64,000 bases of DNA from contig NZ_LR026975.1 of NCBI RefSeq assembly GCF_900603025.1, positions 2,232,001-2,296,000 on the forward strand. Direction: 5' to 3'. This DNA comes from Mycolicibacterium hassiacum DSM 44199 (GTDB lineage: Bacteria; Actinomycetota; Actinomycetes; Mycobacteriales; Mycobacteriaceae). The notes beneath the pieces are model-generated. The model saw nothing but the letters and a program-made list of their open reading frames with translations, made no database searches and had not been told where the DNA came from. This document shows, piece by piece, positions 7,926 to 48,162 of the stretch; within the stretch, counting starts at the first letter, position 1; each line of letters starts with the position of its first letter. The position numbers and the translations under genes are program-made.

Positions 7926-9769
7926 GCCCCCAATCGGGTCAGCAGGGTCGACAGCGCGGCAATCGCGTCGATCTTGGCGGTCAGGTACTCGTCGGGTTTG
8001 TGGGCGGCGTCGGCCACCGCCTGTTCCGGCCCGGCCAGGTAGACGTGGGCCACACCGGCCGCACGGGCCGCGGCGATCACGTCCGAGGCCTCCTCGGCGT
8101 AGCGGGCGTCGGTGCCGCACACCACCGCGGCCGTCTTCGGGCCGTCGGCGACGGCGGCGGCCACCCCGGCCGCGTCGACGGTGCCCGGGTTGACCGCCTC
8201 GATGCCGCCGGCGGCCAGCAGGTTGGTCGCGAACGTGGTGCGCACGTTGTGTTCGGCCAGCGGGCCCAGCGGCAGCAGCAGCGCCTTGGGCCGCTCGCCG
8301 TGTTCGGCGAGATAGGCGTCGGAGCGGTCGCGCAGCGCCTCGAAGTCGGCGGCGTAATGGTTCACCCCGGGCACGGGATCGGATTTGGGCAGCGGCGGTT
8401 CGTCGAGGTTGGGGAACTCGTTGACGCCGGTGATCGCGGTGCGCCGGTGCGCGATGTCGTCGCGGCGGCGCCGCCAGATCTCGTCGATCTGTTCGGTGAT
8501 GTAGTCGCGGGCGGCGACGAAACCGCCGCGGTTCTCGATGTCGCGGAAGTGCGTCCAGGCCTGTTCGGCCAGCGAGCGGGTGAGGTCCTCGACGTACCAG
8601 GAGCCCGCGCCCGGGTCGAGCACCTGGCCGAGGTGCGACTCCTCGAGCAGCAGCAGCTGGGTGTTGCGGGCGATCCGCCGGGAGAAGGTCGGCGAGGTGC
8701 CGGGCAGCCCACCCGGGATCGCGCTGTCGAACGGGTGCACGTGCACGGTGTCGGCGCCGCCCACCCCGGCGGCGAACGCGGCCACCGTGGTGCGCAGCAT
8801 GTTCACCCACGGGTCGCGCTGGGTCATCATCGGCTGCGAGGTCACCGCGTGCAGCACCGCGGCCCCGGCGTCGGGCTCGCCGACCACCTCGGCCACCCGC
8901 GCCCAGAGTTGCCGCGCCGCCCGCAGCTTGGCGATCGACATGAACTGGTCGTCGTCGACGACGAGCCGGAAGCTGATCTGGCGCAACGCATCCCGCACAC
9001 TCAGCCCGCGTTCGGTGAGCAGCCGCAGGTAGCTGACGCCGGCGCCGATCACGGCCGCGAGCTCCCAGGAGGCGTTGGAGCCGAGGTTGTGGCACGCCGG
9101 TCCGTCGACGGTGACCGCGCGCACCCTGCCGTCGTATCCGGCGATGCGCGCCGCGACCGCGGCGACCTCGTCGGTCGCCGGTGCCGGGCGCCGGCTCAGC
9201 GGGGCGGTCAGCGGGTCGGCGCCCAGATCGATCGACAGCCGCGCGCGCCGCTCGGCGTCGAGATCGCCCACCAGCGCCAGCAGCGCGTCCGCGGCGGCGG
9301 TGTAGTCGGCGCCGGCGACCAGCGTGACCGGCACCAGCTCGAGGAACACGCCCTCCAGCAGCCGCTCCAGGTCGGCGGCGGCCACACCGCCCTCCCCCAC
9401 CGTAATGATCAGGGCGCTGGCACCCTCGGTCAGCGCGGTCAGCACCGCCCCGTTGCCGTCGGCCACCGACACCTGACCCGGTGCCGGAAACGCCTCGGCC
9501 ACTTTCCATCCCGACTTCACATCGCGCATCGCGTCCCCACCGCGGATGAACGGCCAGCGGCCCGGCAGCGGCGGTTCCGGCTGGGCGTCCAACGCCGTGT
9601 ACAGCGGGTGGATCGGAAAACCCTCATAGGTCGGCGAATCCAGGAGCTGCTCGGGGGCCGGGCCGAGTTCGGCGGGATCCTTCCGCTTGGCCTTGGCCAA
9701 CACCGAGGCAACCGCGGTGCGCCACTGTTCGCGATCCGACTCCGATACCACGGACGTATCTGAGGACAC
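7922..9769 (-). CDS. mutA: Methylmalonyl-CoA mutase small subunit MutA
   Basis: Non-catalytic partner (615 residues) of MutB. It keeps the barrel architecture ([38 protein letters not shown]) but its C-terminal domain has lost the DxHxxG cobalamin motif, as expected of the small subunit. The start is the GTG at 9769 behind AGGAGAAACC. It is the first gene of the mutA-mutB-meaB operon. The M. tuberculosis equivalent is Rv1492; the MazEF4 toxin-antitoxin pair found between mutB and meaB in that species is absent here. Confidence 0.96.
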
Positions 9770-29592: not shown

Positions 29593-30873
29593 TCATTGGG
29601 TGCCGGTCTGTTCGATCCGGGGTTCGGGTTCATGTCGCCGGCGACGGTTGGCCAGCACTCCCCCGAAGTCGATCAGCTGCTGCCCGACGTTACTGAGCGC
29701 ACGACTGGTGCCCTCCAGCGCCATGTCGACCGTGGCGGAGACGGCTCGCAACGGCGTGGGTACCTCGAGATGCTCCCACTGTTCGGCCTGTCGGCGCCGG
29801 GCTCGGGCGAAATCGTCGAGGGCGTGGCGCAGCCGTTCGCGGTCCTCGGTCAGCCGACGTAGCGCCGGATAGCGGAAGCCGTCGAGTTCGGTTCGGCTGG
29901 CTGCCTGCTCGATGGCGCTCTTGGCCACGCGGTACAGCCTGCCGTCTTCCTGGACCTGGTGGGCGAGCAGCTCCCGGGTGGCTTCGATGACCTGCTCGCG
30001 ATGTTCGGGCTCGTTGGCAACCACTCGGGCGATGAGCAGCCGCTGCCACTTGAACAGGGAGTCCTGGGCGACGAGCAGCAGATGCAGGGTGTCGATGATC
30101 CGGTTCTCCTCGAGCACCCGGCGCATCCGCTTGGCGCGCTCGGACACCGAGCCGTCTGCCGGAACGCTGCGCAGCGAGATCTCGAAGTGGTTGCGCAGCT
30201 TCTCGACGACGGCCTCCAACGCCGGTCCGAGCGAGGCGACGGACTCCCATAACGCATCGGGGAGGGTGCCGTGGCTGTCGAGGTAGCGGATCAGCCGGTC
30301 GAGGCTGGTGTGGTGGCCGACGACGTCGCCGAACCGCTCCGCCTCGGCGAGTTTGAGGACCGCGTCGACCTTGCCCTCCACGCGCTGCACCGACTCATCG
30401 ACCTGGGCGATGGCCGAGGTCAGCGCCATCTGCACGGCGATGAGCTGGATACTCGCCATCCGTTGCGGGCTGAGCGAGGTCGGTTTCCACTGCAGCTGTT
30501 TGACGAACCTGCCGCCGGCACCGCGGGTCATCATGCGGAAATACCCGGCGTCCCCGGGGATGGCGCGTGCCGCCTTGAGTGCCTTGAGGCTGTCCTGCGA
30601 GAGCATGACGAATCGGCCGGATTGCCGCGCGACCGACGCCGCCCCGGCCACATACCCGGCTGCCGCACCCACGGTTGCCGAGTCGACCGATGACTCGTGA
30701 AACGACTCGCCGGCGAGTCGGCGGAGGTGTGCGACGTACTCCTCGACCTCGTCGGGTTCGCCCTCGATCAGCAGCCCTTCGGGCTCTACCGCAATGCTGA
30801 TCTCGCGGACCGGCTCGATCGCGCCATCACCGCTCAACCTGTGCCCCCTCATCCCCGGTACGAACGCACTCAC
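29593..30873 (-). CDS. Unrecognised 426-residue protein at the island edge
   Basis: I do not recognise this protein. Residues about 20-55 form a small alpha/beta segment (ISIAVEPEGLLIEGEPDEVEEYVAHLRRLAG). A glycine/alanine-rich hydrophobic stretch follows (about 66-82, ATVGAAAGYVAGAASVARQ). The rest is nearly all helical, with long charged helices (VEGKVDAVLKLAEAERF, LTEDRERLRHALDDFARARRRQAEQWE) suggestive of coiled coil. There is no obvious catalytic motif. It starts at the GTG at 30873, or at the ATG at 30852. It is followed upstream by the UvrA-like gene in the same orientation after 44 bp. The base composition is like the chromosome. Confidence 0.7.
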   Translation of the reverse strand: MSAFVPGMRGHRLSGDGAIEPVREISIAVEPEGLLIEGEPDEVEEYVAHLRRLAGESFHESSVDSATVGAAAGYVAGAASVARQSGRFVMLSQDSLKALKAARAIPGDAGYFRMMTRGAGGRFVKQLQWKPTSLSPQRMASIQLIAVQMALTSAIAQVDESVQRVEGKVDAVLKLAEAERFGDVVGHHTSLDRLIRYLDSHGTLPDALWESVASLGPALEAVVEKLRNHFEISLRSVPADGSVSERAKRMRRVLEENRIIDTLHLLLVAQDSLFKWQRLLIARVVANEPEHREQVIEATRELLAHQVQEDGRLYRVAKSAIEQAASRTELDGFRYPALRRLTEDRERLRHALDDFARARRRQAEQWEHLEVPTPLRAVSATVDMALEGTSRALSNVGQQLIDFGGVLANRRRRHEPEPRIEQTGTQ

Positions 30874-30917: not shown

Positions 30918-33449
<2,532 letters not shown>

Positions 33450-33549: not shown

Positions 33550-35388
33550 TCAGGAAGTCTTTGTGTTCGTTAGATGCCGGCCGATATACCCTATATATAT
33601 CTTCCCGGTACCATTTGTGTCATCATAATAGTACATTCTGGGAGCAAAGGCGTCACGCCACGTCGGCTTGAAATGTGCCTCCATTAGAACTTTGCCCGAG
33701 GGGTTGACTGACGTTGGAACCGAAAATATCCTCTCGCTGCCCCAGCGTTTAAGCGTTGTTTCGCTTTCCTTTGGCGCATGGCGCGACGGTGCGCATTTAT
33801 GGCCAACGATCTCGTCGTTCGTCAGATAGTGGTGGACACCCCCGGAAATGCGCCCCTGCGCTCGACCTTCGGCGTAATCATATAGGACATGGATGAAATC
33901 CCAGAAGGCGTGGGCATACCTCGGAGTTGGCTCGTATACATCAACCTCGAGCGCCTTGTCTTCATCGCCAGTGAATTCGACCCTGCTGAAAACAATATGT
34001 TCACTTCCCGGCGTGATTCGCTCAAGCAGATTCAATATGTCGTCCGGAGGATCCCATACACTGTCTTCTCTTTCAACGTAGACGAGTTCCACTCTACCGG
34101 ATGCCACCAGCCGTTGACGCAGAACAACGACTTCGCGCTCATATTTTCGCCGCTCCTCTTCGGCAACGGCAAGATCCAGCGAAAGGTTTTCGACTTGCGC
34201 TCTCAGTTCGCGAATATTATTTTCAAGCTTCTCTCTAACTTCAGCAGCCTTATTGAGCTCATCATGCCGCAACGCCGCTTCAAATGTTCGGCGCTCGAGT
34301 AACTCGTCGAGCTTCGTCAGCGAGCTATCGGAGATAGCCCAATCATCGCCAAGCCAGCGATTAATCAGAACCGATAGCCGAGTCATCGGTGTTGCAACAG
34401 CTGGATCTTGACGCGGTTCTTGAGTTTGAATAACAGACTGCGCGTCGACAATCTGCCGCTCTAGATCCCAATTCCGTTGAGCCTCTGCGTGAACCCGCGC
34501 AAGGATATCCAAGCCACGTCGGACGTCGCCCGGTAGATCACGCTCGATAAAACGAAGACGAGAGGCGTGAGCATGCAATCCAACGAGTTCATTCCGAACT
34601 TTACCTCGACGGATATATCTAATTAGCGTTTTCGGATATAGTTTAGGGTGACGTAACGAGTCTTCGGGCGATTCGATATCAACCTTAGGCGCAAATGTCC
34701 TGATGACAGCCTTTTCAATCTGATGCGACTGCGGTAGAGACTGCTGTAAAATCGCAGTGGCAGCTTCGTCGAGGATAAATGTAGATGCTACCCCCACACT
34801 ATATGAGGTTAGCTCGCGAATCAACGCCCGCCATTTCTCTTCGTCGTCCGGCCAGGGCAACGGAGCGACTATAACAGAGGCTGTCCGCGCCTGATCGAGA
34901 ATTGCGGACTGAACGGTGTCGACATCGATTTTCCGGACGACTTGCGGCTCCCCTGTTAGCGGCATTCTTCCATCGAACGCGCGATGGGAGTCAAGAATTC
35001 GGCGCATCAGGCGCGGTGGCGCGACCGTCCGAATAGCCTGGTCGACAGTTTCGACGTCTAGCTCTACATCGACAACCAGAGTGTTTGGAAAACTTTTCGC
35101 TCGCGGCACCGAAAGAGCGTAAAGAGAAACTGTAAAAGTTCCGCGATTGTTGGACTCCATAAGTCGGTATAGTCGGCGACAGGAACCGTCTGGTCTCTCG
35201 GTGTCGTGCACGACGGTCAGTCGCGCATTCGAACCAAGGCGAAATTCGCCTTCGCCATCCCAATCAGCAGTTTCAAGAGTACCCTTTTTTTTCTTCTCTC
35301 TGAGCCATGCGACCAGCTGCGATTCTGCGGCGATGATGGCATCATCGGAATCGTCTAGCCGGACAATCGCCCGATACCCCAGCGCCAC
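33550..35388 (-). CDS. AT-rich unrecognised coiled-coil protein, divergent from the defence operon
   Basis: I do not recognise this 612-residue protein. The N-terminal third is alpha/beta. Residues about 160-300 contain a strand-helix region with SVIVAPLPWPDDEEKWRAL, TFILDEAATAIL and AVIRTFAP followed by RHPKLYPKTLIRY. Residues about 360-430 are a strong coiled coil (ELRAQVENLSLDLAVAEEE). The C-terminal domain (about 445-612) ends in EAHFKPTWRDAFAPRMYYYDD and GKIYIGYIGRHL, a strand-rich end with conserved-looking H, K, R and Y residues. Codon use is markedly AT-rich (many ATA, TTA, AAT, TCT), unlike neighbours, which indicates recent transfer. The GTG at 35388 lies 9 nt after AGGAGG; a TTG two codons upstream is possible. 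It diverges from the helicase operon. Confidence 0.8.
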   Translation of the reverse strand: MALGYRAIVRLDDSDDAIIAAESQLVAWLREKKKKGTLETADWDGEGEFRLGSNARLTVVHDTERPDGSCRRLYRLMESNNRGTFTVSLYALSVPRAKSFPNTLVVDVELDVETVDQAIRTVAPPRLMRRILDSHRAFDGRMPLTGEPQVVRKIDVDTVQSAILDQARTASVIVAPLPWPDDEEKWRALIRELTSYSVGVASTFILDEAATAILQQSLPQSHQIEKAVIRTFAPKVDIESPEDSLRHPKLYPKTLIRYIRRGKVRNELVGLHAHASRLRFIERDLPGDVRRGLDILARVHAEAQRNWDLERQIVDAQSVIQTQEPRQDPAVATPMTRLSVLINRWLGDDWAISDSSLTKLDELLERRTFEAALRHDELNKAAEVREKLENNIRELRAQVENLSLDLAVAEEERRKYEREVVVLRQRLVASGRVELVYVEREDSVWDPPDDILNLLERITPGSEHIVFSRVEFTGDEDKALEVDVYEPTPRYAHAFWDFIHVLYDYAEGRAQGRISGGVHHYLTNDEIVGHKCAPSRHAPKESETTLKRWGSERIFSVPTSVNPSGKVLMEAHFKPTWRDAFAPRMYYYDDTNGTGKIYIGYIGRHLTNTKTS

Positions 35389-35747
35389 GCCCAATGCCCT
35401 CCTGCGACCTAGGAATTGCTCTCCGGCGGAAGCCTACACAGAGAACTCAGACAAGTCACCACAAAAGGTGTACATTTCGCAGGTCGTTCCGACCGGGGAT
35501 CGCCTTCCAGTCCTCACATCCTGGTCAGCGAGACGAATCCCGCTTGACCCACTTGCCCCGGGCCTACAACAGCAGTACCTGAATAGCGAATAGATGCTCT
35601 TCATGACACGTTTACTACGTTGCTATCGTCGAACCCGACAGACGCTGGCGACATGGAACACGCCCACGGCGCGACTCGAAACCACCGTCGCCCTATTGTC
35701 GGTAGCGTCGACTACCGTTAAGCAGCTATCGAACTGGGAGGGGCGCG
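35389..35747. promoter_or_regulatory. Divergent intergenic region of the defence cluster
   Basis: This 359-bp gene-free stretch separates the AT-rich gene from the helicase. It carries an AGGAGG site for the former at 35398-35403 and GGGAGGGG for the latter at 35737-35744. Short frames inside it have poor codon use and no RBS. A candidate promoter for the helicase is TTGTCG (35696-35701), 17 nt, TAAGCA (35719-35724). I see no RNA gene or repeat array. Confidence 0.5.
35700..35717. promoter_or_regulatory. Inverted repeat in the helicase promoter
   Basis: CGGTAG-cgtcga-CTACCG has perfect 6-bp arms and falls exactly in the spacer between the proposed -35 and -10 of the helicase operon, 30 bp before the GTG. 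The position suits a repressor or autoregulator. Confidence 0.5.
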
Positions 35748-38700
35748 GTGCTGCTGGAGGACCTGAAGCCAGGTCTGCGAGTCGACGGGTTGATCCCGGG
35801 TACGACGATCACCGTCATCTTTGCCCAGTGGCACGGCACCGACGCCCTCGAGCTGACCTACAAGACCAGCGACGGGGGTCTCGGCCAACAGGTGGTTTTC
35901 CGTAAGGACGAGGACAAACTGTCCGTCGCCCAGACCGGCAGCCGCGCCTTCGACGCCAATGCGACGGACTTCAAGCTGGCGGCCGAGGCCCAGCGGATCT
36001 CCCTGGCCGGGTTGTTCGACCCGATGCTGGCGGTGGCGACCAGCGATGTCCGGCCATTGCCCCACCAGATCAGGGCCGTGTACGGGGAGTTGCTCCCCCG
36101 GACGCCGCTACGCTTCCTGCTCGCCGACGACCCAGGTGCCGGCAAAACCATCATGGCCGGGCTCTACATCAAGGAACTTTTGCTGCGCGACGATGTGCGA
36201 CGCTGCCTGGTGGTGGCTCCCGGTGGCTTGGTCGAGCAGTGGCAGGATGAGCTGTTCTTCAAGTTCGGCCTGCGGTTCGATCTGCTGACCAACCAGCTCA
36301 TCGACGCCAACGCCAACCTCAACGTCTTCGAGACCCACCCGCTGCTCATCGCGCGGATGGACCAACTTGCCCGCAACGAGGAGTTGCAGGCACAGCTCGG
36401 GGAAACCGAGTGGGACCTGGTGATCGTCGACGAGGCGCATCGCATGGGTGCCCACTACTTCGGTGGGAAGGTGGAGAAAACCAAGCGCTTCCTGCTCGGG
36501 GAGCTGCTCGGCACGATCACGCGGCATTTCCTGCTCATGACCGCCACTCCCCACTCCGGCAAGGAAGAGGATTTCCAGCTCTTTCTCACGCTGCTGGACC
36601 GTGACCGGTTCGAAGGCAGGAACACGAGGACTGCCGACACCAGCGGCATCATGCGCCGCATGATCAAAGAAGAGCTGCTGACCTTCGAGGGCAAGAAGCT
36701 CTTCCCGGAGCGGATCGCCGAGACCGTCCCGTACGAGGTCACCGAACGCGAGTACGACCTCTACGAACGGGTCACCGAATACGTGCGGGAGGGCATGAAC
36801 CGCGCCGACAAGGTGGGCGGCAAACGCAAGAACACGGTCGGATTCGCGTTGACAGTCCTGCAGCGCCGGCTCGCCTCCAGCCCGGAGGCCATCTACAAGA
36901 GCCTGGTTCGGCGCGCCCAGCGGCTGGAGCGCAAGAAGCAGCAGCTCCTCGACGGCACCTACACCGAAAAAGAGCCGACGGTCGATCTCGAAGCACTCGA
37001 CGCCGATGACTACAACGCCGAGCAGATCGAAGAACTCGAAGAAGAACTGCTCGATGCGGCGACCGCGGCGCAAACCGTGGAAGAGCTCGATGCGGAGCTA
37101 CGCCATCTCGCGGAGCTTATCGAGGTCGCCCGCCAGGTCCGCGACTCCGGTGTCGACCGCAAGTGGACCGAGTTGAGCAGAATCCTGCAGGACGAGGCCC
37201 TCACCCTCGACGCCAAGGGGTACCCCCGGAAGCTCATCATCTTCACCGAACACCGCGACACCCTCGACTACCTCGCCGCGCGGATTCGCTCGCTGATCGG
37301 CAAAGCCGATGCCGTGCAGGCCATCCACGGCGGGGTGCGCCGCGCCGAGCGACGCCGCATCACCGAGGAGTTCACAAAGAACCCGGGATGCCAGATCCTC
37401 ATTGCCACCGACGCCGCCGGTGAGGGGCTGAACCTGCAAGCCGCGCACTTGATGGTCAACTACGACCTGCCCTGGAACCCGAACCGCATCGAGCAGCGCT
37501 TCGGCCGCATCCACCGCATCGGCCAGCAAGAGGTCTGCCGGTTGTGGAACATCGTTGCCGGCAACACCCGCGAGGGCGAGGTATTCGTTCGTCTACTCGC
37601 AAAGATCGAAGAGCAGCGAAAAGCCTATGGCGGAAAGGTTTTCGACGTCCTGGGCCAGGTCTTCACCGAGACGCCATTGCGGGATCTGCTGATCGAAGCG
37701 ATCCGTTACGGCGAACGGGACGATGTCAAGGCCAGGATGCACGAGGTGATCGATCACAAAGTCGCTGACGGCCTCAAGGAAGTCCTGGAGCAGCAGGCGT
37801 TGGCGTCCGATCATCTCGCTGAAGCAGACATGGCCCAGTTGCGCGCGGCCATGGACGAGGCCAGAGCGATGCGGCTGCAGCCGCACTACATCGAGATGGC
37901 CTTCAAAGCCGCATTCACCCGGCTCGGCGGGCGCATCGCCAAGCGCGAGCGTGGCCGCTACGAGATCACCCACGTCCCGGCCCAGCTCCGCGCGGGCAAG
38001 TACCAGCCGATCGCCACCAAGTATGACCGCGTCACCTTCGACCTGGACCGGGTCGAACCCGACGGCCTCCCCCGCGCAGACCTCCTCGCGCCCGGTCATC
38101 CGCTGCACGACGCGGTGATGGACGAAGCCATTCGCCAGTTCGGTGGCGCACTGAATTCCGGCACCGTGCTGGTGTCGGCGAAACTCGAGGAACCCCACCT
38201 GCTGGTCGGGGTGATCGAGGAAATCGTTGATGCGACCGGCGCCACGGTGTCGCGCCGCTTCGGCTATGCGCTCGTCGACAGTACCGGCACAGTCACGCCA
38301 GCCGGGCCGGCACCGTATCTCGACTGTGTCGCCGCACCTGAGACCCCGACGGTGGCGGAAGCACGGCAACTGCCGTGGCTGGCCGACGCGGAAGACCGCG
38401 CGACGAGCTGGATCATCACCAATCACCTCCCCGAATACCTCGCGGAAGTACAGCCCCGCCGGGCCGCCGATTTGGCCAAGACCCGAGAACTGGTCGTGAA
38501 GCGGCTGGAGAGCGAACGAGACCGCCTTCTGCTCGAAGCCGCTGTGGCCGCCGAAAAGGAGCGTGCCGGCGAGAAGCCGAAGGAGTCCGCCGAGAGCCTC
38601 AACCGCAAGGCCGTCGAACTCGATGCCCGACTTCGCAAGCGGCTCGAGGTGCTCGATCAACAGGCGCAGATGTCCACCAAGCCGCCGCGCATCATGACCG

Positions 38701-39158
38701 CGGCGTTGATGCTGCCGGTGAGCATGGTGGATGGTGACCTGCCCGACTCGGTGCCGATCCACGCGAAGGAAACCACCGCCGTCGAGCGCCGCGGCATCGA
38801 ACGTGTTCTCACGGCTGAGCGCCGGCTCGGCCGCATACCTGTCGAACAAGCGCACAACAACAAGGGCTTCGACATCCTGTCGTCGGACCCGAGCGGTGAC
38901 ACCTACCGCATCGAGGTCAAAGCGCGCTTGGCTGGCGCAACCGACTTCTTCGTCACCCACAACGAGGTGATGGTGGGCAAGAACGCCGCCCCGCGCTACA
39001 GACTCGCCCTGGTCAAGGTCGACCCGCGCGGACCCGACTACGACGAAGTCCGTTATCTCGACAACCCATTCGCGACGACCGAGTTGGGCGACTTCGAAGC
39101 CACCGGGGTTCGCGGCGACTGGAACAAGATGTGGAGCAAAGGAACCGAACCGTTCTGA
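35748..39158 (+). CDS. SF2/SNF2-type helicase with C-terminal DUF3883 domain (Hma-type defence helicase)
   Basis: A 1136-residue DNA translocase or helicase. Motifs in order: DDPGAGKT (Walker A, 127-134), VIVDEAH (225-231), TATPHS (265-270), a helical insertion rich in glutamate (about 390-470), then the second RecA domain with TDAAGEGLNLQ and QRFGRIHRIGQ (near 583-593). The C-terminal region has a charged coiled coil (about 900-970). It ends with a DUF3883-like domain in which GFDI (about 1040) and IEVKA (1055-1059) resemble the catalytic core of PD-(D/E)xK nucleases. GTG start with GGGAGGGG upstream. Its stop overlaps the methylase ATG (TGATG). Such helicases occur with DUF1156 and DUF499 proteins in anti-phage clusters. 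Confidence 0.93.
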   Translation: MLLEDLKPGLRVDGLIPGTTITVIFAQWHGTDALELTYKTSDGGLGQQVVFRKDEDKLSVAQTGSRAFDANATDFKLAAEAQRISLAGLFDPMLAVATSDVRPLPHQIRAVYGELLPRTPLRFLLADDPGAGKTIMAGLYIKELLLRDDVRRCLVVAPGGLVEQWQDELFFKFGLRFDLLTNQLIDANANLNVFETHPLLIARMDQLARNEELQAQLGETEWDLVIVDEAHRMGAHYFGGKVEKTKRFLLGELLGTITRHFLLMTATPHSGKEEDFQLFLTLLDRDRFEGRNTRTADTSGIMRRMIKEELLTFEGKKLFPERIAETVPYEVTEREYDLYERVTEYVREGMNRADKVGGKRKNTVGFALTVLQRRLASSPEAIYKSLVRRAQRLERKKQQLLDGTYTEKEPTVDLEALDADDYNAEQIEELEEELLDAATAAQTVEELDAELRHLAELIEVARQVRDSGVDRKWTELSRILQDEALTLDAKGYPRKLIIFTEHRDTLDYLAARIRSLIGKADAVQAIHGGVRRAERRRITEEFTKNPGCQILIATDAAGEGLNLQAAHLMVNYDLPWNPNRIEQRFGRIHRIGQQEVCRLWNIVAGNTREGEVFVRLLAKIEEQRKAYGGKVFDVLGQVFTETPLRDLLIEAIRYGERDDVKARMHEVIDHKVADGLKEVLEQQALASDHLAEADMAQLRAAMDEARAMRLQPHYIEMAFKAAFTRLGGRIAKRERGRYEITHVPAQLRAGKYQPIATKYDRVTFDLDRVEPDGLPRADLLAPGHPLHDAVMDEAIRQFGGALNSGTVLVSAKLEEPHLLVGVIEEIVDATGATVSRRFGYALVDSTGTVTPAGPAPYLDCVAAPETPTVAEARQLPWLADAEDRATSWIITNHLPEYLAEVQPRRAADLAKTRELVVKRLESERDRLLLEAAVAAEKERAGEKPKESAESLNRKAVELDARLRKRLEVLDQQAQMSTKPPRIMTAALMLPVSMVDGDLPDSVPIHAKETTAVERRGIERVLTAERRLGRIPVEQAHNNKGFDILSSDPSGDTYRIEVKARLAGATDFFVTHNEVMVGKNAAPRYRLALVKVDPRGPDYDEVRYLDNPFATTELGDFEATGVRGDWNKMWSKGTEPF

Positions 39159-42022
39159 TGACCGAGAACGTGACCAGCGCACCCAAGCGCAAGCTGATCG
39201 AGGTATCACTGCCACTCGAGGCCATCAACCGTGAGTCAGCGCGGGAGAAGTCCATCCGGCATGGGCACCCGTCGACACTTCATCTGTGGTGGGCGCGCCG
39301 TCCGCTCGCCGCTGCCCGTGCGGTGTTGTTCGCACAGCTCGTTGACGATCCGTCGTCCCGCCCTGAGGAGTTCCCCACCGAAGAACTCCAGCGCAAGGAG
39401 CGGGAACGCCTCCATAAGCTCATCGAGCGACTCGTCGTGTGGGAGAACTCCAACGACGAAACGCTCCTGGCCGAAGCCCGAGCCGAGATCCTCAAGTCGA
39501 CCAACGGCAATCCCCCGCCCATCTTGGATCCCTTCGCCGGCGGCGGCACGATCCCGCTCGAGGCGCAACGGCTCGGTCTCGAAGCCCACGCTTCGGACCT
39601 CAACCCCGTTGCGGTGCTTATCAACAAGGCGTTGATCGAGATCCCGCCCAGGTTCGCCGGCAGACCACCGGTTTCTCCGTCCGTCTCGAAAGAGGAGCTT
39701 GCTCACCCGTGGCCTGGTGCGACCGGACTGGCCGAGGACGTTCGTCGTTACGGACAGTGGATGCGTGACGAGGCCGAGAAGCGCATTGGAGACCTCTACC
39801 CCAAGGCCACGCTTCCCGACGGATCCGAGGCCACCGTGATCGCCTGGATCTGGGCCCGGACGGTTACCTGCCCCAATCCGGGATGCGGGATTGCCATGCC
39901 ACTCGTTCGGTCATGGTGGCTCGGCAAGAAGAAAGGAAAAGAGTCGTATGTGGTGCCGTCCGTGGTAGACGGCAAGGTCCATTTTTCGATCGGCCACGAC
40001 CCGAAGAGCGCGCCTCAACCGGATGGCACGGTTGGACGTACCGGCGCAACGTGCATCGGCTGTGGAACAGCTGTTGAACTGAAATACATTCGCGCAGAGG
40101 GGCAGTCAGGACGCATTGGCGCCAAGCTAATGGCAATAGTTGCAGAACAAGATCGGTCACGAGTTTATCTCGAGCCGACGCATGAACATGAAGTTGCCGC
40201 GAGCGTCTGTAGACCGGAAAATATCCCTTCAGGAGAGCTACCGTCCCAGGCGCTTGGTTTTCGTGTTCAAGCCTACGGCTTCAAGGAATACACCGACTTA
40301 TTCACTCCACGCCAACTCACGACGTTAACCACCTTTAGCGATCTTGTTCTTGAGGCTCGCGAACGGGTACGGGCGGATGCACTCGCCGCAGGGATACCTG
40401 ACGGGGACAATCTCGAGGCAGGCGGAACTGGTGCCGCAGCTTATGGGGACGCGGTTGCAACCTACCTTGGAATGGCCGTGAGCCGACTCGCGGACATTGC
40501 GAATAGCTTATGTCGGTGGGAGAACACAAAGGGACAGATTCGTAACCTTTTTGCACGGCAAGCAATCCCAATGGTGTGGGATTACGCCGAGACCACCCCA
40601 TTCGGCAAAGCCGCTGGCTCATATCTGGTAAGCCTTGGCAGTATCGTAAAGGCCATCCGAGTTGTGGGTGATCGGTCCGGTCACACTGAGCAGGCATCGG
40701 CGACCAATCGATCGTTCGGAGGCTACGTTATTTCGACCGACCCGCCCTATTATGACAATATCGGTTACGCCGATTTATCGGACTTCTTCTACGTATGGCT
40801 TCGTCGGTCTTTGCGATCGATTCATTCAGAGTTATTCCAGACCATGCTGACGCCGAAAGCCAATGAACTCGTCGCTAATCCATATCGTTACGGCGGTAAA
40901 GACGGCGCGAAACGGTATTTTGAGAACGGCCTTCACGAGGTTTTTCGTCGTGCACGTGAGGCAGCGCTACCTGACTATCCAATCACCACTTACTACGCGT
41001 TCAAGCAGTCAGAGACTACCGATTCCGGCGAGACCTCCACGGGTTGGGAGAGCTTTCTTGAAGGGATAATCAGCTCCGGTTGGGCAGTGACATCAACTTG
41101 GCCGCTCCGCAGCGAGCTTGAAAATCGGCCCCGCTCACTTGGATCGAATGCTCTGGCCTCCTCGATCATCTTGGCATTACGCCCGCGCTCAAGTTCCGCC
41201 CCGAGAACAGACCGAAGGCAGTTCATTGAGGCTCTCAAAGCAGAACTTCCGCCCGCGTTGAAGGACCTCCAGCATGGGGCGATAGCCCCAGTAGATCTTC
41301 GCCAAGCAGCTATCGGACCAGGTATGGCTGTCTTTAGCCGGTATTCAGCTGTAATCGAGCCGGACGGTTCGAGGATGACAGTTCGTTCGGCGCTCGCGCG
41401 TATCAACGAAGTACTTGCCCAGGTCCAGAATGATCAGGTGAGTGATTTCGACTCGACAACGCGCTTCGCCATCTCTTGGTATCAGCTGAACGGCTATAAT
41501 ATTGGCCGCTTTGGTGATGCCAACACCATAGCCAATGCCGAAAACACTTCGGTTGATGCCATGGCTCGCAGCGGCATCTTGACGAGCAGGGCAGGCAAAG
41601 TTCAACTGATCAGACCATCCGATCTCGACCCTGAATACGACGTCCTTAGGGATGCGCATACGAGCAACTGGGAGGCTCTACACCACCTCATCCGACTTCT
41701 CGAGGGTGAAGGTATTCCGGCAGCGGGCTCCTTCCTCCAGTCAGCATTGAGCCGGCCGGATCACGTCGTCGATGCGGACCTCATCAAGGAGCTCGCCCAC
41801 CTGCTCTTCCGCATCGCGGAGTCGAACGGCTGGACCAACGACGCGCTGAGCTTCAACAACTTGGTGACGAGCTGGCCGGAGATCCTGGCGGCGACAAGGT
41901 CGAGCGGCGAGCGTCAGGATGTCCAAAGAGGCTTTCGACTTCGCCACCGACGAGTCGTGATGAGGGCCAGGAAACGTGGAGTCGAGGAACCCGAGACGGG
42001 GGTAAGACGGGAATGGCACTAA
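39158..42022 (+). CDS. DUF1156 adenine-specific DNA methylase
   Basis: A 954-residue N6-adenine methyltransferase of the COG1743 type. The N-terminal DUF1156 segment is LIEVSLPLEAINRESAREKS...HLWWARRPLAAARA. The SAM-binding motif is DPFAGGGTIPLEA (near residue 125). A zinc-ribbon-like part has CPNPGCG and CIGCG. The catalytic motif is DPPYYDNIGYADLSDFFYVWLRR (near 530). The ATG overlaps the helicase stop (TGATG), and the annotated 3' end overlaps the ATPase gene by 10 nt. The middle of the gene (about 40050-41700) is visibly less G+C-rich than either end. The last 30 or so residues are arginine-rich and may result from a frame change near 41900 (see findings). It likely marks host DNA. Confidence 0.92.
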   Translation: MTENVTSAPKRKLIEVSLPLEAINRESAREKSIRHGHPSTLHLWWARRPLAAARAVLFAQLVDDPSSRPEEFPTEELQRKERERLHKLIERLVVWENSNDETLLAEARAEILKSTNGNPPPILDPFAGGGTIPLEAQRLGLEAHASDLNPVAVLINKALIEIPPRFAGRPPVSPSVSKEELAHPWPGATGLAEDVRRYGQWMRDEAEKRIGDLYPKATLPDGSEATVIAWIWARTVTCPNPGCGIAMPLVRSWWLGKKKGKESYVVPSVVDGKVHFSIGHDPKSAPQPDGTVGRTGATCIGCGTAVELKYIRAEGQSGRIGAKLMAIVAEQDRSRVYLEPTHEHEVAASVCRPENIPSGELPSQALGFRVQAYGFKEYTDLFTPRQLTTLTTFSDLVLEARERVRADALAAGIPDGDNLEAGGTGAAAYGDAVATYLGMAVSRLADIANSLCRWENTKGQIRNLFARQAIPMVWDYAETTPFGKAAGSYLVSLGSIVKAIRVVGDRSGHTEQASATNRSFGGYVISTDPPYYDNIGYADLSDFFYVWLRRSLRSIHSELFQTMLTPKANELVANPYRYGGKDGAKRYFENGLHEVFRRAREAALPDYPITTYYAFKQSETTDSGETSTGWESFLEGIISSGWAVTSTWPLRSELENRPRSLGSNALASSIILALRPRSSSAPRTDRRQFIEALKAELPPALKDLQHGAIAPVDLRQAAIGPGMAVFSRYSAVIEPDGSRMTVRSALARINEVLAQVQNDQVSDFDSTTRFAISWYQLNGYNIGRFGDANTIANAENTSVDAMARSGILTSRAGKVQLIRPSDLDPEYDVLRDAHTSNWEALHHLIRLLEGEGIPAAGSFLQSALSRPDHVVDADLIKELAHLLFRIAESNGWTNDALSFNNLVTSWPEILAATRSSGERQDVQRGFRLRHRRVVMRARKRGVEEPETGVRREWH

Positions 42023-45000
42023 GCAATCGTGACCGCATCGATCGGATGTTCCAGATCATGGCGCCCGCGCTCGATGACTTCATCGCCACCGTCATCGGTC
42101 AAGGTGATGCAGCCCTAGGTGCGGTGTGGACGAAGCTTGTTCAGGCGAAAGACTCCAAGAACGGTGCGCCGTCCGACAAGACATACGACCCCCTCGATCC
42201 GCAGGTCCAGTTCCGGATGCTGACCGAACGGAACATCACCACGAAGTTCAAGACCGGCTGGTACCCGTTCGACGATGCCTTGGGCCGGATCGGCGAATCT
42301 TACGCGATCGAACTTCGCGATATCCGCAACAAGTGGGCTCACAACGGCACGTTCACCGATGATGACGCCTACCGAGCGCTCGACACGGGTGAACGGCTTC
42401 TCCGCCTGATCAACGCCACAGAAGAAGCCGACCAGGTTCGGGACATCCGACTGAACCTCCGGCGAGTCGCCGCCGACAAGGATGACAAGAAGGCCCTGAA
42501 GACCGCGGTGACGAACCCGGAATCGTCCGGGCTGAAACCGTGGCGCGAGGTACTTCCACCGCACGACGATGTGGCCACCGGGAACTTTGCGGCCTCCGAG
42601 TTCGCTGCGGACCTCTACAAGGTCGCTGTCGGCGGCGAACAGGATTCGGGATACGCAGATCCGGTCGAGTTCTTCCGGCGCACGTATATCACCGAGGGGT
42701 TGGCCGACCTGATCAGCGGTGCGGTTCGGCGCCTGAGCGGTGACGACAACGCACCGCCGGTGATCAACCTGCAGACAAACTTCGGCGGCGGCAAGACTCA
42801 CTCGATGCTGGCGCTGTGGCACATCGCGGCAGGCCGACCCATCGGCGACTTCCCACAGGACACCCAGGAGTTGCTCGCCGCCAACGGTTACACCGGGGCC
42901 AAAGTCAACCGCGTCGCCATCGTCGGAAACCATCTCAGCCCCTCAGGATCCGTCAAGAACGACGGCACCCAGGTCAACACCGTCTGGGGAGAGCTGGCAT
43001 GGCAGCTCGGCGGGCCAGAAGCCTACCGGATCGTCGAGAAAGCCGACTTCGACCGAACCCCGCCGGGCGAAGCCCTGCACAAACTGCTCGCACAGTATTC
43101 GCCGGCCATCATCCTCATCGACGAATGGGTCGCCTACGCCCGGTCACTCGTCGGGCGGGACGATCTCGCCGGCGGCACCTTCGACGATCAGTTCACGTTC
43201 GCCCAGGCACTGACCGAGGCTGCCAAGAGCACCTCGGGTGTGTTGCTCCTGATCTCCATTCCGGCCTCCGAGGCCGGCGACGATCCCAACGAGACCGTCA
43301 AGGGAAACGCCGAGGAAGTTGGCGGCGCCCACGGACTGGAAGCGCTGAAACGCCTCCAGAACGTCGTCCGCCGTGTCGCACACCAGTGGCGGCCAGCCTC
43401 CTCCACCGAGGCGTACCAGATCGTTCGCCAGCGGCTCTTCACCCAGCCCGACGCCGCAGCCCTCGCCGCAATCAGCGCAACAGCGCGGGCCTTCGTCGAC
43501 ATGTACCGCAGATACACCGACGACTTCCCGCGCGAGGCCCGCGACCCCGAATACGAAGAACGGATCAAGCAGACCTACCCGATCCACCCCGAGCTGTTCG
43601 ACCGGCTTTACGAGGAATGGTCCTCGCTCGAACGATTCCAGCGCACCCGCGGCGTGCTGCGTCTGATGAGCGCTGTGGTCCACGCCCTGTGGACCGGCGA
43701 AGACGCATCCCCCATGATCATGCCGGGGTCGATCCCGCTGGCGGTCGCCAACGTGAACGCAGAACTCACCGGCTACCTGCCTGATTCCTGGAAGGCAATC
43801 ATCGATGCCGACGTCGACGGCCCCAACTCGGAGCCGGCACGCATCGACAAGGACAAGCCCCTCTTCGGTCAACGCTCCCTCACCAAGCGATTGGCTCGCA
43901 CCGTCTTCTTCGGCGCAGCGCCGACAATCGGCGCCGCACACAAAGGCCTGGAAGCCCGACGCGTCTTCTTGGGCACAGCCATTCCGGGCGACGTGCCAGG
44001 CAACTTCCATTCCGCCCTGACCCAACTGGCCGACCGCGCAACCTACTTCTATTCCGGCTCGGGCAAGTACTGGTACGACCTGCAGGCCAACATCTCGCGA
44101 CGCGCGAAGGACCAGGCCGAACGCCTCCACAAGGAAGACGTCTGGGCCGATATCGCGCGGCGGCTTCAGACGCAGGCGCGGACCCGGGGCGATTTCGCAG
44201 GAGTCCATGTGTGTCCCGAGTCGAACGCCGACATACCCGACACCGACGAAGCTCGCTTGGTGATCCTGCACCCCAAGGTGGCGCATAAACGCGGGACCGA
44301 CTCACCAGCCAAGGAGTTCGCCCACAAGGCAACCGAGCAACGGGGTACGGCCAACCGCACCCACCGCAACATGCTCGTCTACCTCGCCGCCGACGAGGCG
44401 CGGTTGGAGGAGCTCGAGTACGCGGTCCGCGACTACCTCGGCTGGTCACACGTACTCGACAACGAAGCGGAACTCGACCTCACCCAGAACCAGAAGAACC
44501 AGGCCGTCCAGCGGCAATCACAGGCCGATCAAACCGCCAACGCCCGCCTGCTCCAAACATTCATCTGGGCGCTCGTGCCGTCGCAGCCCGACCCGAGCGC
44601 ACCGTTCATCATCCGTGAGACCAAGATCGAAGGCCAGTCGGAATGGCTGGCCGAACGGGTCTCTCGCAGGCTGGGCAGCGACGGCGATCTCTCGACACGG
44701 CAAGCTGCGGTGAACATCCGGCTCGCGATCAACAAGGTGCCTCAAGTCTGGAAAGACGGCCACGTGGCGCTCGGCACCTTGTGGGGGCTCTACAGCCAGT
44801 ACCCGTATATGCCGCGGCTTCGCGACCGCAAGGCTCTCGAGGAAGGCGTCACCGATCTTCCGATGCTGTGGGAGACCGATGCCTTCGCCCTCGCATCCGG
44901 CTACGACGCAGCAAAGCAGCGGTATATCGGGCTCTGGCTGCCACACGAACAGAACACCCCCCCAGCTCCTAACGACTCGATGCTGCTGGTCCAGCCGGAG

Positions 45001-45363
45001 GTTGCCACCCGGCAACGCAATGAGGAGGTGCCGCACGACTCCGCTGGTCCAGACAGTCAGCGAGCCGAGAGCGCTGAACGAGGGCAGCACTCTGATCCAC
45101 ACCGCCGTCCGGAAATCGACATCGCATTCCCGCCGACGCGGTTCTTCGGTGTTAAGACATTGAACTCCGACAGAATCGCATTGGAGTTCAAGAACATCGC
45201 CGACGAGGTGATCGCGAATCTGCGCGAGCAAGGAGTCAACCTCACCGTACGCATCGAGATCGAAGCAACCGCAGATCACGGATTCGACGAGTCGAAAGTC
45301 CGTACCGTGTCGGAGAACGCCCGAACGCTGAAATTCGACCAGTCCGGTTTCGAACGCGACTAA
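42013..45363 (+). CDS. DUF499 ATPase with N-terminal Swt1-type HEPN domain
   Basis: A 1116-residue protein. Residues 1-135 match Swt1-type HEPN domains, with the motif RNKWAH (R105 to H110) inside a helical bundle; in other HEPN proteins an R-x4-6-H pair is the ribonuclease centre. The DUF499 AAA+-like ATPase core follows: Walker A TNFGGGKT (about 255-262), Walker B IILIDEWVAY (366-374), and later ISIPASE as a sensor. The C-terminal strand-rich domain (about 1030-1116) carries RFFGVKTLNSDRIALEFKNIADEVI. The ATG at 42013 lies inside the end of the methylase frame. Third gene of the helicase-methylase-ATPase operon. Confidence 0.93.
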   Translation: MALSNRDRIDRMFQIMAPALDDFIATVIGQGDAALGAVWTKLVQAKDSKNGAPSDKTYDPLDPQVQFRMLTERNITTKFKTGWYPFDDALGRIGESYAIELRDIRNKWAHNGTFTDDDAYRALDTGERLLRLINATEEADQVRDIRLNLRRVAADKDDKKALKTAVTNPESSGLKPWREVLPPHDDVATGNFAASEFAADLYKVAVGGEQDSGYADPVEFFRRTYITEGLADLISGAVRRLSGDDNAPPVINLQTNFGGGKTHSMLALWHIAAGRPIGDFPQDTQELLAANGYTGAKVNRVAIVGNHLSPSGSVKNDGTQVNTVWGELAWQLGGPEAYRIVEKADFDRTPPGEALHKLLAQYSPAIILIDEWVAYARSLVGRDDLAGGTFDDQFTFAQALTEAAKSTSGVLLLISIPASEAGDDPNETVKGNAEEVGGAHGLEALKRLQNVVRRVAHQWRPASSTEAYQIVRQRLFTQPDAAALAAISATARAFVDMYRRYTDDFPREARDPEYEERIKQTYPIHPELFDRLYEEWSSLERFQRTRGVLRLMSAVVHALWTGEDASPMIMPGSIPLAVANVNAELTGYLPDSWKAIIDADVDGPNSEPARIDKDKPLFGQRSLTKRLARTVFFGAAPTIGAAHKGLEARRVFLGTAIPGDVPGNFHSALTQLADRATYFYSGSGKYWYDLQANISRRAKDQAERLHKEDVWADIARRLQTQARTRGDFAGVHVCPESNADIPDTDEARLVILHPKVAHKRGTDSPAKEFAHKATEQRGTANRTHRNMLVYLAADEARLEELEYAVRDYLGWSHVLDNEAELDLTQNQKNQAVQRQSQADQTANARLLQTFIWALVPSQPDPSAPFIIRETKIEGQSEWLAERVSRRLGSDGDLSTRQAAVNIRLAINKVPQVWKDGHVALGTLWGLYSQYPYMPRLRDRKALEEGVTDLPMLWETDAFALASGYDAAKQRYIGLWLPHEQNTPPAPNDSMLLVQPEVATRQRNEEVPHDSAGPDSQRAESAERGQHSDPHRRPEIDIAFPPTRFFGVKTLNSDRIALEFKNIADEVIANLREQGVNLTVRIEIEATADHGFDESKVRTVSENARTLKFDQSGFERD

Positions 45364-46272: not shown

Positions 46273-48162
46273 CTACCGCTGGTTCACCAGCCAGCCGCGG
46301 TGGCGCATCGCCGCCTTGCGCGCCGCCCGGGCGATCCCGGCGTCGGGCAGGTGCCGGCCCAGGGTGTCGAGCACCTCGGCGGTCTCGGCCGCCGGGCAGC
46401 GCCACATCTGCTCGAGCAGCTCGAGCATGTCCGCGGCGCTGCGGTCGGCGACGAACAACCGGCACAGCTGCGCGGGGTCGTCCAGGGCGGCGCCGAGGAT
46501 GTCGACGAGCACCCCGATGTGCACGAAACCGCCCACCGTCTCGGTGTCGGCCAGGCCGTGCTGGATCAGCCACAGCGCGGCGTGCCCGCCGGCCGGGCTG
46601 TCGAGCAGCTGCCGCACCATCGGGGCGCTGGCCTGCGGGTCGAGGTGTTCCAGCCCGACGAACCCGCCGATCCGGTGCGCGGCGGTCCGGGCCTCGCCGA
46701 TGGCGGTCACGAGCGCCTCGGTCCGCTCGGCCGGGGTCCGGTCGGGCTGCCAGGCGGCGATGACCTCGGCGTGCCGGTCCTCCGCCACCGACACGAGCGC
46801 CTCGATGAGCGCGGCGCCGTCGGCGGCGGCGAGGTCGTCGACGGTGCGCAGCACGTACCCGGCGTCGGGCACGAACTCCGCGACGATCTCGCGGCCCAGG
46901 GCGGTGAGCCGCACCTGCCCACCGACCCAGACCGAGCAGCCCCGGTCCTGCAGTTTGACCACCCGGTCGTCCCAGGCGACCACGCCCGTGGTCCGCAGCG
47001 TGTCGAAGATCCGGCTCACCCGCCCCTCGACGAGGTCGGCGAGGTCGAACGGCTGCCGGACGTGGCCGAGCTGCCGGTCGCTCGCTGCGAGGGCGATCTC
47101 GACGATCCGGTCGTAGTCGGCCTGGGTGTCCTGCGCCAGCAGCGGGGCCAGCCAGTGCACCACGCCCTCGTCGAGCAGCCCGTCGAGTTCGTCGACGAAG
47201 GGGTGCTCCGCCCGGCCCCGGCAGCCGAGCACGCCGATGGCGAGCACCGTGTGGGCCAGCCGCCGGGCCCGGCGCGCCGCCGGCTCCCGGTCCCAGGCGT
47301 GCACCGGCACCAGCCGCTGCCGCAGCACCCGCACCGCCCCGGCCTCCCGGGCGGTCAGCACGACGAAGCCCAGCCCCTCGAAGAACGCGGTCGAGTGCCG
47401 GTCGACCTCGTCGCCGGTGCCGAGCAGCGCCACCAGCGCCCGGCCGTCGGCGAGCCGCAGGTTGCCCTTCTTGGTCAGCGGTTTGCCGTCGGCGCCGAGG
47501 TACTCCCGCAGCGCCTCCGCCTTGGCCAGCAGCGGTGTGGCCGCGGCGGCCTCGAGCTCGGCCGCGGTCGGCGGCAGGTACAGGAACGGCAGCTCGTGCG
47601 GTTCGTCCGGCTCGTCGAAGAACTGGTCGGTGAGCGCCTTGCGCTGTTCGTAGGGCAGCGAGTTGAACTCGGCCATCCGCGCGGCGAGCGCCTCCTCGAG
47701 CTCCTCCTCGGTCAGCCCGGCCACGTCGAGCCCGGCCAGCAGCGTCTTGGTCAGCCCGAAGTTGTCGGAATCGACCATCGCCGTGCGCATCTCGCCGACC
47801 AGTTCGCCGCACAGCGTCATCAGCCGGGCGGCCCGGGCCAGGCCGCCGGCCAATCGGCCGGTGTCGGCGAGGAACTCGATGAACACGCTGACCGCCCAGC
47901 ACAGCCCGTCGACGGCGGCGGCCGGCAGCGACACCTGCTGCGGGCAGTACTCGAGCAGGAACTCGGTGAGGTCGGCGTCCTCGTAGCCGTCGAGCACCCG
48001 GTTGGAGTAGTAGAACCGCCAGTCCAGCAGCAGGCCGGCGTCGGCGGCCACCTCGTCGGCCGCCACCGGGTCGTGCCGCTCCCCCAGCCAGCGGGCGAAG
48101 TCGTCCAGCAACCGCTCCCGGGTCGCGGTGTACTCGTCCTCGTCGGCCGGTGTCAGCGCCAT
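46273..48162 (-). CDS. Unrecognised 629-residue soluble protein
   Basis: I do not recognise a named family for this large, mostly helical cytosolic protein. Residues about 215-250 (LLAKAEALREYLGADGKPLTKKGNLRLADGRALVALL) form a segment of the kind seen next to plasmid pRiA4b ORF-3-type domains. A winged-helix-like part near 385-420 (RIFDTLRTTGVVAWDDRVVKLQ...VRLTALGREIV) follows. There are no signal peptide, membrane helices or catalytic motifs. G+C content and codon use are chromosomal. It converges on the hydrolase gene with a 3-bp gap and lies 40 bp downstream of sufT. Confidence 0.8.
   Translation of the reverse strand: MALTPADEDEYTATRERLLDDFARWLGERHDPVAADEVAADAGLLLDWRFYYSNRVLDGYEDADLTEFLLEYCPQQVSLPAAAVDGLCWAVSVFIEFLADTGRLAGGLARAARLMTLCGELVGEMRTAMVDSDNFGLTKTLLAGLDVAGLTEEELEEALAARMAEFNSLPYEQRKALTDQFFDEPDEPHELPFLYLPPTAAELEAAAATPLLAKAEALREYLGADGKPLTKKGNLRLADGRALVALLGTGDEVDRHSTAFFEGLGFVVLTAREAGAVRVLRQRLVPVHAWDREPAARRARRLAHTVLAIGVLGCRGRAEHPFVDELDGLLDEGVVHWLAPLLAQDTQADYDRIVEIALAASDRQLGHVRQPFDLADLVEGRVSRIFDTLRTTGVVAWDDRVVKLQDRGCSVWVGGQVRLTALGREIVAEFVPDAGYVLRTVDDLAAADGAALIEALVSVAEDRHAEVIAAWQPDRTPAERTEALVTAIGEARTAAHRIGGFVGLEHLDPQASAPMVRQLLDSPAGGHAALWLIQHGLADTETVGGFVHIGVLVDILGAALDDPAQLCRLFVADRSAADMLELLEQMWRCPAAETAEVLDTLGRHLPDAGIARAARKAAMRHRGWLVNQR

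What the first reader, a model, noticed from the sequence alone, without database searches (positions are those of the whole stretch)
33550..35388. AT-rich divergent gene is a candidate undescribed component of the defence cluster
This 612-residue protein matches no family I know. It is divergent from the defence operon across a single 359-bp promoter region. Its codon use is much more AT-rich than the chromosome and similar to the atypical middle of the methylase. It has a central coiled coil and a strand-rich C-terminal domain ending in a conserved-looking R-Y-Y-Y...IGYIGRHL pattern, which could be a small effector fold (RelE/HigB-like is one guess). It could be an effector, sensor or regulator of the Hma operon.
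Basis: partly seen in the sequence, partly recalled or inferred. Interest (0 to 1): 0.85.

Follow-up and report, generated by a model that had tools for sequence, protein, structure and literature searches.

The report
HEC-07 defence candidate beside Hma operon
The gene is a real, apparently acquired member of a known but uncharacterised phage-defence candidate family (HEC-07), and it probably works on its own as swappable cargo next to the Hma defence operon, not as a missing part of it.

Summary
In detail: a 612-codon gene at 33550-35388(-), with its own ribosome site, lies 359 bp from hmaA and is far more AT-rich (GC3 0.52) than the chromosome. "No known family" is wrong: residues 123-286 match PADLOC's HEC-07 ("Hma-embedded candidate", E=7.9e-12) and residues 540-607 the C-terminus of Menshen NsnC (E=2.2e-10). 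Evidence favours an independent module over an Hma subunit or regulator. HEC-07 and HmaC co-occur in 2 of 396 genomes (about 2.1 expected by chance). Relatives sit beside BREX, DISARM, Wadjet, Shango or AbiE genes (8 of 26 loci; neighbours picked by eye). One genome keeps a whole HEC-07 beside half an hmaA. A same-genus Hma operon (about 76% DNA identity) has an AbiEii-like gene in that position, and four of six plasmid Hma operons viewed carry other genes there. Only H572, R584 and H605 are invariant in 29 C-domains, suggesting a catalytic or ligand site. The RelE/HigB guess got no profile support. The structure model was poor. No function was tested. Verdict: new member of a known, uncharacterised family; moderate interest.

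The parts
33550..35388 (-). HEC-07 family gene, 612 aa, GTG start
   Evidence: ORF and translation; HEC-07 profile PDLC04161 on own genome E=2.4e-10 and on residues 101-329 E=7.9e-12; 63% full-length homologue
34531..35022 (-). N-terminal region matching HEC-07 profile positions 142-307 (residues 123-286); contains P125, R168 and A201, conserved in 17-18 of 18 aligned members
34102..34329 (-). predicted coiled coil, residues 354-429
   Evidence: one long helix in a low-confidence model; weak coiled-coil matches
33553..34071 (-). C-terminal domain, residues 440-612, shared with NsnC and ATP-cone proteins; invariant H572, R584, H605
   Evidence: NsnC PDLC03912 E=2.2e-10 over residues 540-607; alignment of 29
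35389..35747 (.). 359-bp divergent intergenic region; only the 60 bp next to hmaA align with the same-genus Hma locus
   Evidence: no promoter-, terminator- or repeat-like match
35748..39158 (+). hmaA, helicase (neighbour, not part of the gene)
   Evidence: PADLOC HmaA E=0, 1300 bits
39131..42022 (+). hmaB, DUF1156 adenine methylase (neighbour)
   Evidence: PADLOC HmaB E=0; DUF1156 E=4e-31
42013..45363 (+). hmaC, DUF499 ATPase with N-terminal HEPN_Swt1 (neighbour)
   Evidence: PADLOC HmaC E=2e-266; HEPN_Swt1 E=4e-30

Best explanation
The gene encodes a HEC-07 family protein: a self-contained, single-gene defence candidate carried as interchangeable cargo beside the Hma (Type-1 BREX-related) operon. 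Shown: family membership, composition unlike the chromosome, defence genes near a share of its relatives, and variable occupancy of the position upstream of hmaA. Inferred: the N-terminal region senses an infection cue, the coiled coil drives self-assembly, and the C-terminal domain, the part shared with NsnC and ATP-cone proteins, is the acting end, with H572, R584 and H605 (and mostly E541, R553, D590) forming a catalytic or ligand-binding site, perhaps a metal-independent nuclease or nucleotide-cleaving site.
For: The HEC-07 profile hits this gene alone in its genome and directly at E=7.9e-12. 10 of 10 relatives scanned hit HEC-07. The C-domain matches NsnC and follows an ATP-cone in two other proteins (L015/L054, one gene; L065). 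Defence genes near relatives: PglX-BrxL-HEC06-DrmD (L067), BrxC (L047), DrmB and DrmMI (L052), DrmD and DrmMI/type IIG (L054), DrmMI-DrmA-DrmB (L072), JetABC (L062), SngAB (L050), AbiE (L065), hmaA remnant (L053): 9 of 26 loci, neighbours picked by eye in 10 of them; L054, L065 and L072 are C-domain-type relatives without the HEC-07 N-domain. Leave-one-locus-out panel: 7 of 26 against 0 of 34 control windows (one of the seven is probably a housekeeping helicase). Co-occurrence with HmaC in 2 of 396, about chance. Same-genus Hma has an AbiEii-like gene in that position; four of six plasmid Hma loci viewed carry other genes there. A whole HEC-07 overlaps the stop of a truncated hmaA in G278, which is not among the 35 genomes with HmaC. 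A 63% relative lies in a phage-like record without HmaC. H/R/H invariant in 29 of 29 C-domains.
Against: No function tested. Physical links to Hma recur: here, in G278 (overlap with half an hmaA), and perhaps as a 184-aa N-terminal fragment 3 bp behind hmaC in G360 (HMM E=1.7e-9; but no PADLOC hit, and no significant pairwise match); these could reflect cooperation. In two of eight close Hma operons viewed there is no defence-like gene divergent from hmaA. The AbiEii-like gene in G029 covers only part of its profile and may be broken. 16 of 26 relative loci were not scanned for defence neighbours. The catalytic reading rests on conservation alone; the structure model had mean pLDDT 56 and no fold match reached E 0.001.
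Confidence: 0.6

Rival explanations
1. The protein is an accessory component or regulator of this Hma operon, acting through HmaA/B/C or through the shared intergenic region.
For: Divergent across 359 bp; hmaA remnant and HEC-07 overlap in G278; a possible HEC-07 fragment 3 bp behind hmaC in G360; the family is named for Hma embedding.
Against: Absent from the 77/76%-identical Hma operon of the same genus and from six plasmid Hma loci; at most a fragment in 1 of 18 fetched Hma loci (in at least 7 of these the flank upstream of hmaA was cut off or nearly so, so absence there is weak); no co-occurrence beyond chance; composition differs from HmaA and HmaC.
Confidence: 0.2
2. It is a plasmid- or prophage-borne maintenance or superinfection-exclusion gene whose defence neighbours merely reflect shared mobile islands.
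For: Homologues on actinomycete plasmids (10 of 72,556 records), an ICE-like locus (L048, read by eye) and a phage-like record with a minor tail gene.
Against: 0 of 50,697 phage records and sporadic on plasmids, so not a housekeeping gene of either; panel hits exceed control windows.
Confidence: 0.12
3. The C-terminal domain is a RelE/ParE/HigB-type RNase and the protein is a toxin-like effector.
For: Helices followed by strands in the low-confidence model, two invariant His and one Arg, and a C-terminal strand with a late His recall such RNases (recalled likeness).
Against: Profile-profile: 7.6% over 15 columns to ParE_toxin and 0.2% to Gp49/HigB-like, while ParE against Gp49 gives 91.9%; no Pfam hit in 29 C-domains below E 0.02; no such toxin among the 10 PDB sequence matches.
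Confidence: 0.1

Closest known systems
PADLOC HEC-07 (Hma-embedded candidate 07; Payne et al. preprint, doi 10.1101/2024.01.29.577857, seen only as a reference in PMC11411939; the preprint is not held and was not read)
   Same: Direct profile match of residues 123-286; relatives match across nearly the whole 553-position profile (for example L050); same N-domain/coil/C-domain build; lies beside Hma.
   Different: Divergent member: a whole-protein scan at E 0.1 did not list HEC-07; it flanks the Hma operon, it is not inside it; activity of HEC-07 unknown to me.
Menshen NsnC (PADLOC PDLC03912, PDLC03879)
   Same: C-terminal residues 540-607; up to about 150-170 residues in relatives.
   Different: No match to the NsnC N-terminus and no Menshen partners recognised among the window ORFs scanned; NsnC profiles are 305-316 positions, this protein is 612 aa. 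The Menshen paper PMC12065111 is not held.
[quoted passage not shown]
   Same: Genes found embedded in Hma clusters and reported to function independently (passage of PMC11411939).
   Different: GmrSD-like proteins, not matched by this one; antiviral activity is reported for several HECs including HEC-06 (passage of PMC12988326), HEC-07 not named there.
Hma / Type-1 DUF499 BREX-related system
   Same: Neighbouring operon.
   Different: Described as ATPase, methylase and helicase only (passages of PMC12839542); HEC-07 is not among its core parts.

Membership tests
HEC-07 | match to the PADLOC HEC-07 profile | tested here: met
   own-genome search E=2.4e-10; residues 101-329 E=7.9e-12; not listed in the whole-protein scan at E 0.1
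HEC-07 | whole-length relatedness to other HEC-07 members | tested here: met
   L073 63%, L002 and L009 37% full length, each hitting HEC-07
HEC-07 | located in or next to an Hma cluster | tested here: met
   359 bp from hmaA; flanking, not inside
HEC-07 | anti-phage activity | not testable with these tools
   needs a bench assay; no paper on HEC-07 found in the held library
Menshen NsnC | C-terminal NsnC region | tested here: met
   E=2.2e-10, residues 540-607
Menshen NsnC | whole NsnC protein with NsnA and NsnB as neighbours | tested here: not met
   only the C-end matches; of the neighbours, HmaA/B/C and three flanking ORFs were scanned, with one weak NsnB match (UvrA-like ATPase, E=3e-7)
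RelE/ParE/HigB toxin superfamily | profile similarity of the C-terminal domain | tested here: not met
   7.6% and 0.2% against a 91.9% positive control; HigB PF05015 itself not compared
RelE/ParE/HigB toxin superfamily | RelE-type fold | tested here: inconclusive
   model pLDDT 56; C-domain job failed and the tool was then off
Hma (Type-1 BR) core | regular part of the operon | tested here: not met
   0 of 6 plasmid Hma loci; at most a fragment in 1 of 18 fetched Hma loci, G029 among them

The most novel reading that the evidence does not exclude
The H-R-H C-terminal domain is an unrecognised shared effector enzyme that different defence proteins (HEC-07, Menshen NsnC, ATP-cone proteins) couple to different sensors, and the divergent position upstream of hmaA is a plug-in slot where Hma operons collect such independent modules (HEC-07, AbiEii-like, DEAD and UvrD helicases, a TIR-like protein).
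Probability: 0.3. Interest if true: 0.65.

Novelty: new member of a known kind. Interest (0 to 1): 0.42.

Why it matters
It gives an actinobacterial, divergently placed member of a family known to me only as a candidate, links its C-terminal domain to Menshen NsnC through three invariant residues, and suggests that the flank of hmaA is a variable cargo position. That makes clear tests possible: does the gene protect alone, and do H572, R584 and H605 matter?

Tried and rejected
Whole-protein Pfam, NCBIfam and PHROGs scans gave no real family. PDB sequence searches gave mostly coiled coils, one insignificant match, CP12 at E=1.2e-4 to the helical part of the C-domain only, and nothing better than E=1 for the N-terminal region. 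Structure prediction of the whole protein had pLDDT 56 with a nine-sequence alignment, and Foldseek found nothing at E<=0.001. RelE/HigB by hhalign: rejected on sequence. GIY-YIG from the 'IYIGYIG' letters: considered and dropped, as the motif order and the downstream R/E are wrong (recalled motif, no call). Promoter, terminator and repeat scans of the intergenic region: nothing. Flanking genes as insertion-site markers: of little use, both are themselves accessory at the cut-offs used (1 of 60 and 7 of 60 genomes). Phage records: no match. Viral-contig scans: none, 9 loci, 2 loci of which 1 new, 1 repeat. Menshen and HEC literature: the Menshen paper and the HEC preprint are not held.

Full report
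Observation. The window carries a 612-codon ORF at 33550-35388 on the minus strand. Its GTG start has AGGAGG nine bases upstream (sequence). It diverges from hmaA across 359 bp. Its GC3 is 0.517, against 0.845-0.978 in eight sampled flanking genes, 0.836 in hmaA, 0.789 in hmaC and 0.47-0.58 in the middle of hmaB. The neighbours are a complete Hma operon: HmaA, HmaB and HmaC by PADLOC, DUF1156 in HmaB, DUF499 and an N-terminal HEPN_Swt1 in HmaC.

Identity. Pfam, NCBIfam and PHROGs do not place the protein. PADLOC does. The C-terminal residues 540-607 match Menshen NsnC at E=2.2e-10. That whole-protein scan did not list HEC-07, but a search of the own genome with the HEC-07 profile PDLC04161 finds this gene and no other (E=2.4e-10), and a scan of residues 101-329 finds HEC-07 at E=7.9e-12. 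All 10 relatives scanned match HEC-07. HEC stands for Hma-embedded candidate (a passage of PMC12988326); [quoted passage not shown] The HEC preprint and the Menshen paper PMC12065111 are not held and were not read. A text search found no paper on HEC-07 (the single match to the term was a COVID paper).

Relatives. The closest is 63% identical over 610 residues. It lies at the end of a 61-kb viral record with a minor-tail gene nearby; HmaC is not in that record, which may be a fragment. Full-length relatives of 37% identity occur in a Microbacteriaceae genome and in G356. Of 72,556 plasmids 10 hold a match: Streptomyces 6, Nocardiopsis 2, Kitasatospora 1, Amycolatopsis 1; of 50,697 phages none. 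Among 148 relatives searched, 2 matched, self included; in a phylum sample of 396 genomes the protein finds 8 and the HEC-07 profile 24, self included in both.

Anatomy. In 18 aligned members W28, R168, H572, R584 and H605 are invariant, and P125, A201 and D590 are shared by 17. In 29 C-terminal domains only H572, R584 and H605 are invariant. The C-terminal domain also follows a weak DUF4406-like part plus an ATP-cone in L015 (the same gene as L054) and an ATP-cone in L065. So it is a module re-used behind different N-termini. Profile-profile comparison gives no support to ParE or Gp49/HigB-like families (7.6% and 0.2%, with a 91.9% positive control).

Is it part of Hma? In the 396-genome sample HEC-07 is in 24 genomes (E<=1e-3) and HmaC in 35 (E<=1e-20); both are in 2, G000 and G307, and about 2.1 would be expected by chance (the expectation is my arithmetic). 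In G307 the two lie on different contigs and the relative is the ATP-cone type. Window HmaB and HmaC match none of 31 fetched neighbourhoods of relatives, while HmaA-like helicases match six. Conversely, 18 Hma loci were fetched, G029 among them: one (L161) holds a 184-aa ORF 3 bp behind hmaC that the family HMM scores as an N-terminal fragment (E=1.7e-9), although PADLOC and pairwise BLAST do not recognise it. In at least seven of the 18 the flank upstream of hmaA was missing or nearly so, which weakens the absence. Six close plasmid Hma loci hold none. In the same genus, G029 has the same operon (77.2% and 75.9% DNA identity over 4.5 and 3.4 kb); homology begins 60 bp before hmaA, HEC-07 is absent, and an AbiEii-like gene, partial against its profile and perhaps broken, points away from hmaA instead. 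Of 47 plasmid records matching hmaC I viewed six: divergent from hmaA is a DEAD helicase in two (66% identical to each other), a UvrD-type helicase in one, an annotated nucleotide-binding protein (TIR-like to my eye) in one, and nothing defence-like in two; these last two carry a gene inside the operon (a DUF262 protein; an 819-aa unknown). In G278 a whole HEC-07 (540 aa from ATG 9257; another in-frame start lies at 9233) overlaps the stop of an hmaA of which only profile positions 650-1169 of 1176 were found, and G278 is not among the 35 genomes with HmaC. These facts fit swappable cargo better than a subunit, though the repeated physical link to Hma is real.

Is it defence at all? Neighbours were picked by eye and scanned with PADLOC in 10 of 26 fetched loci; BREX, DISARM, Wadjet, Shango or AbiE genes or an hmaA remnant were found in 9 of the 26. 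Three of the nine (L054, L065, L072) are C-domain-type relatives without the HEC-07 N-domain. With a 21-protein panel, excluding panel proteins from the same locus, 7 of 26 neighbourhoods hit at 70 bits against 0 of 34 control windows from 17 of the same genomes (Fisher p=0.0017); at 100 bits 5 of 26 against 0 of 34. One of the seven (L066) is, to my eye, a housekeeping DEAD-box helicase. Caveats: apart from the window's Hma proteins the panel came from these very loci; some of the 26 are weak or partial profile hits; control windows came only from contigs over 100 kb.

Mechanism. Best reading: a stand-alone module in which the N-terminal region senses, the coiled coil assembles, and the C-terminal domain acts through H572, R584 and H605. 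Only the conservation is shown; sensing, assembly and catalysis are inferred. A nuclease or nucleotide-cleaving activity is the likeliest guess, at modest odds.

Verdict. Already named as a candidate family; this is a new member with an informative position. Interest moderate.

Noticed in passing
window 40203-40972: Middle of hmaB (about residues 358-614) loses DNA homology, but for a 78-bp piece, to the otherwise 77%-identical same-genus hmaB and has low GC3: probably an exchanged specificity region of the methylase.
   Followed up: partly
L148 9470-10996: In G029 hmaB lies in two ORFs with a transposase-like ORF (by eye) between them, so that Hma copy is probably inactive.
   Followed up: no
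L214-L219 and L148, upstream of hmaA: The position divergent from hmaA holds different genes in close Hma operons: DEAD helicase (two), UvrD-type helicase, nucleotide-binding (TIR-like by eye) protein, AbiEii-like.
   Followed up: partly
L067 4142-16139: PglX, BrxL, HEC-07, HEC-06-like and DrmD-like genes in a row: two Hma-embedded candidates together inside a BREX-like cluster.
   Followed up: partly
L054 8846-10243 and L065 8552-10243: Proteins with an ATP-cone (and a weak DUF4406/deoxyribosyltransferase-like part in L054) followed by the same C-terminal domain.
   Followed up: partly
window 30918-33449(-): 843-aa UvrA-like ATPase, in 1 of 60 sampled genus genomes at E<=1e-200, self included; residues 510-824 match PADLOC mad3 at E=4e-67.
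   Followed up: no
window 29593-30873(-) and 46273-48162(-): ORFs of 426 and 629 aa beside the island; neither had a PADLOC or Pfam hit, and the first had no NCBIfam hit.
   Followed up: no
residues 467-510 of the protein, about window 33859-33990(-): Profile match of the C-domain's helical part to CP12 (6gfo, E=1.2e-4): weak, possibly a helical hairpin of the same kind.
   Followed up: no
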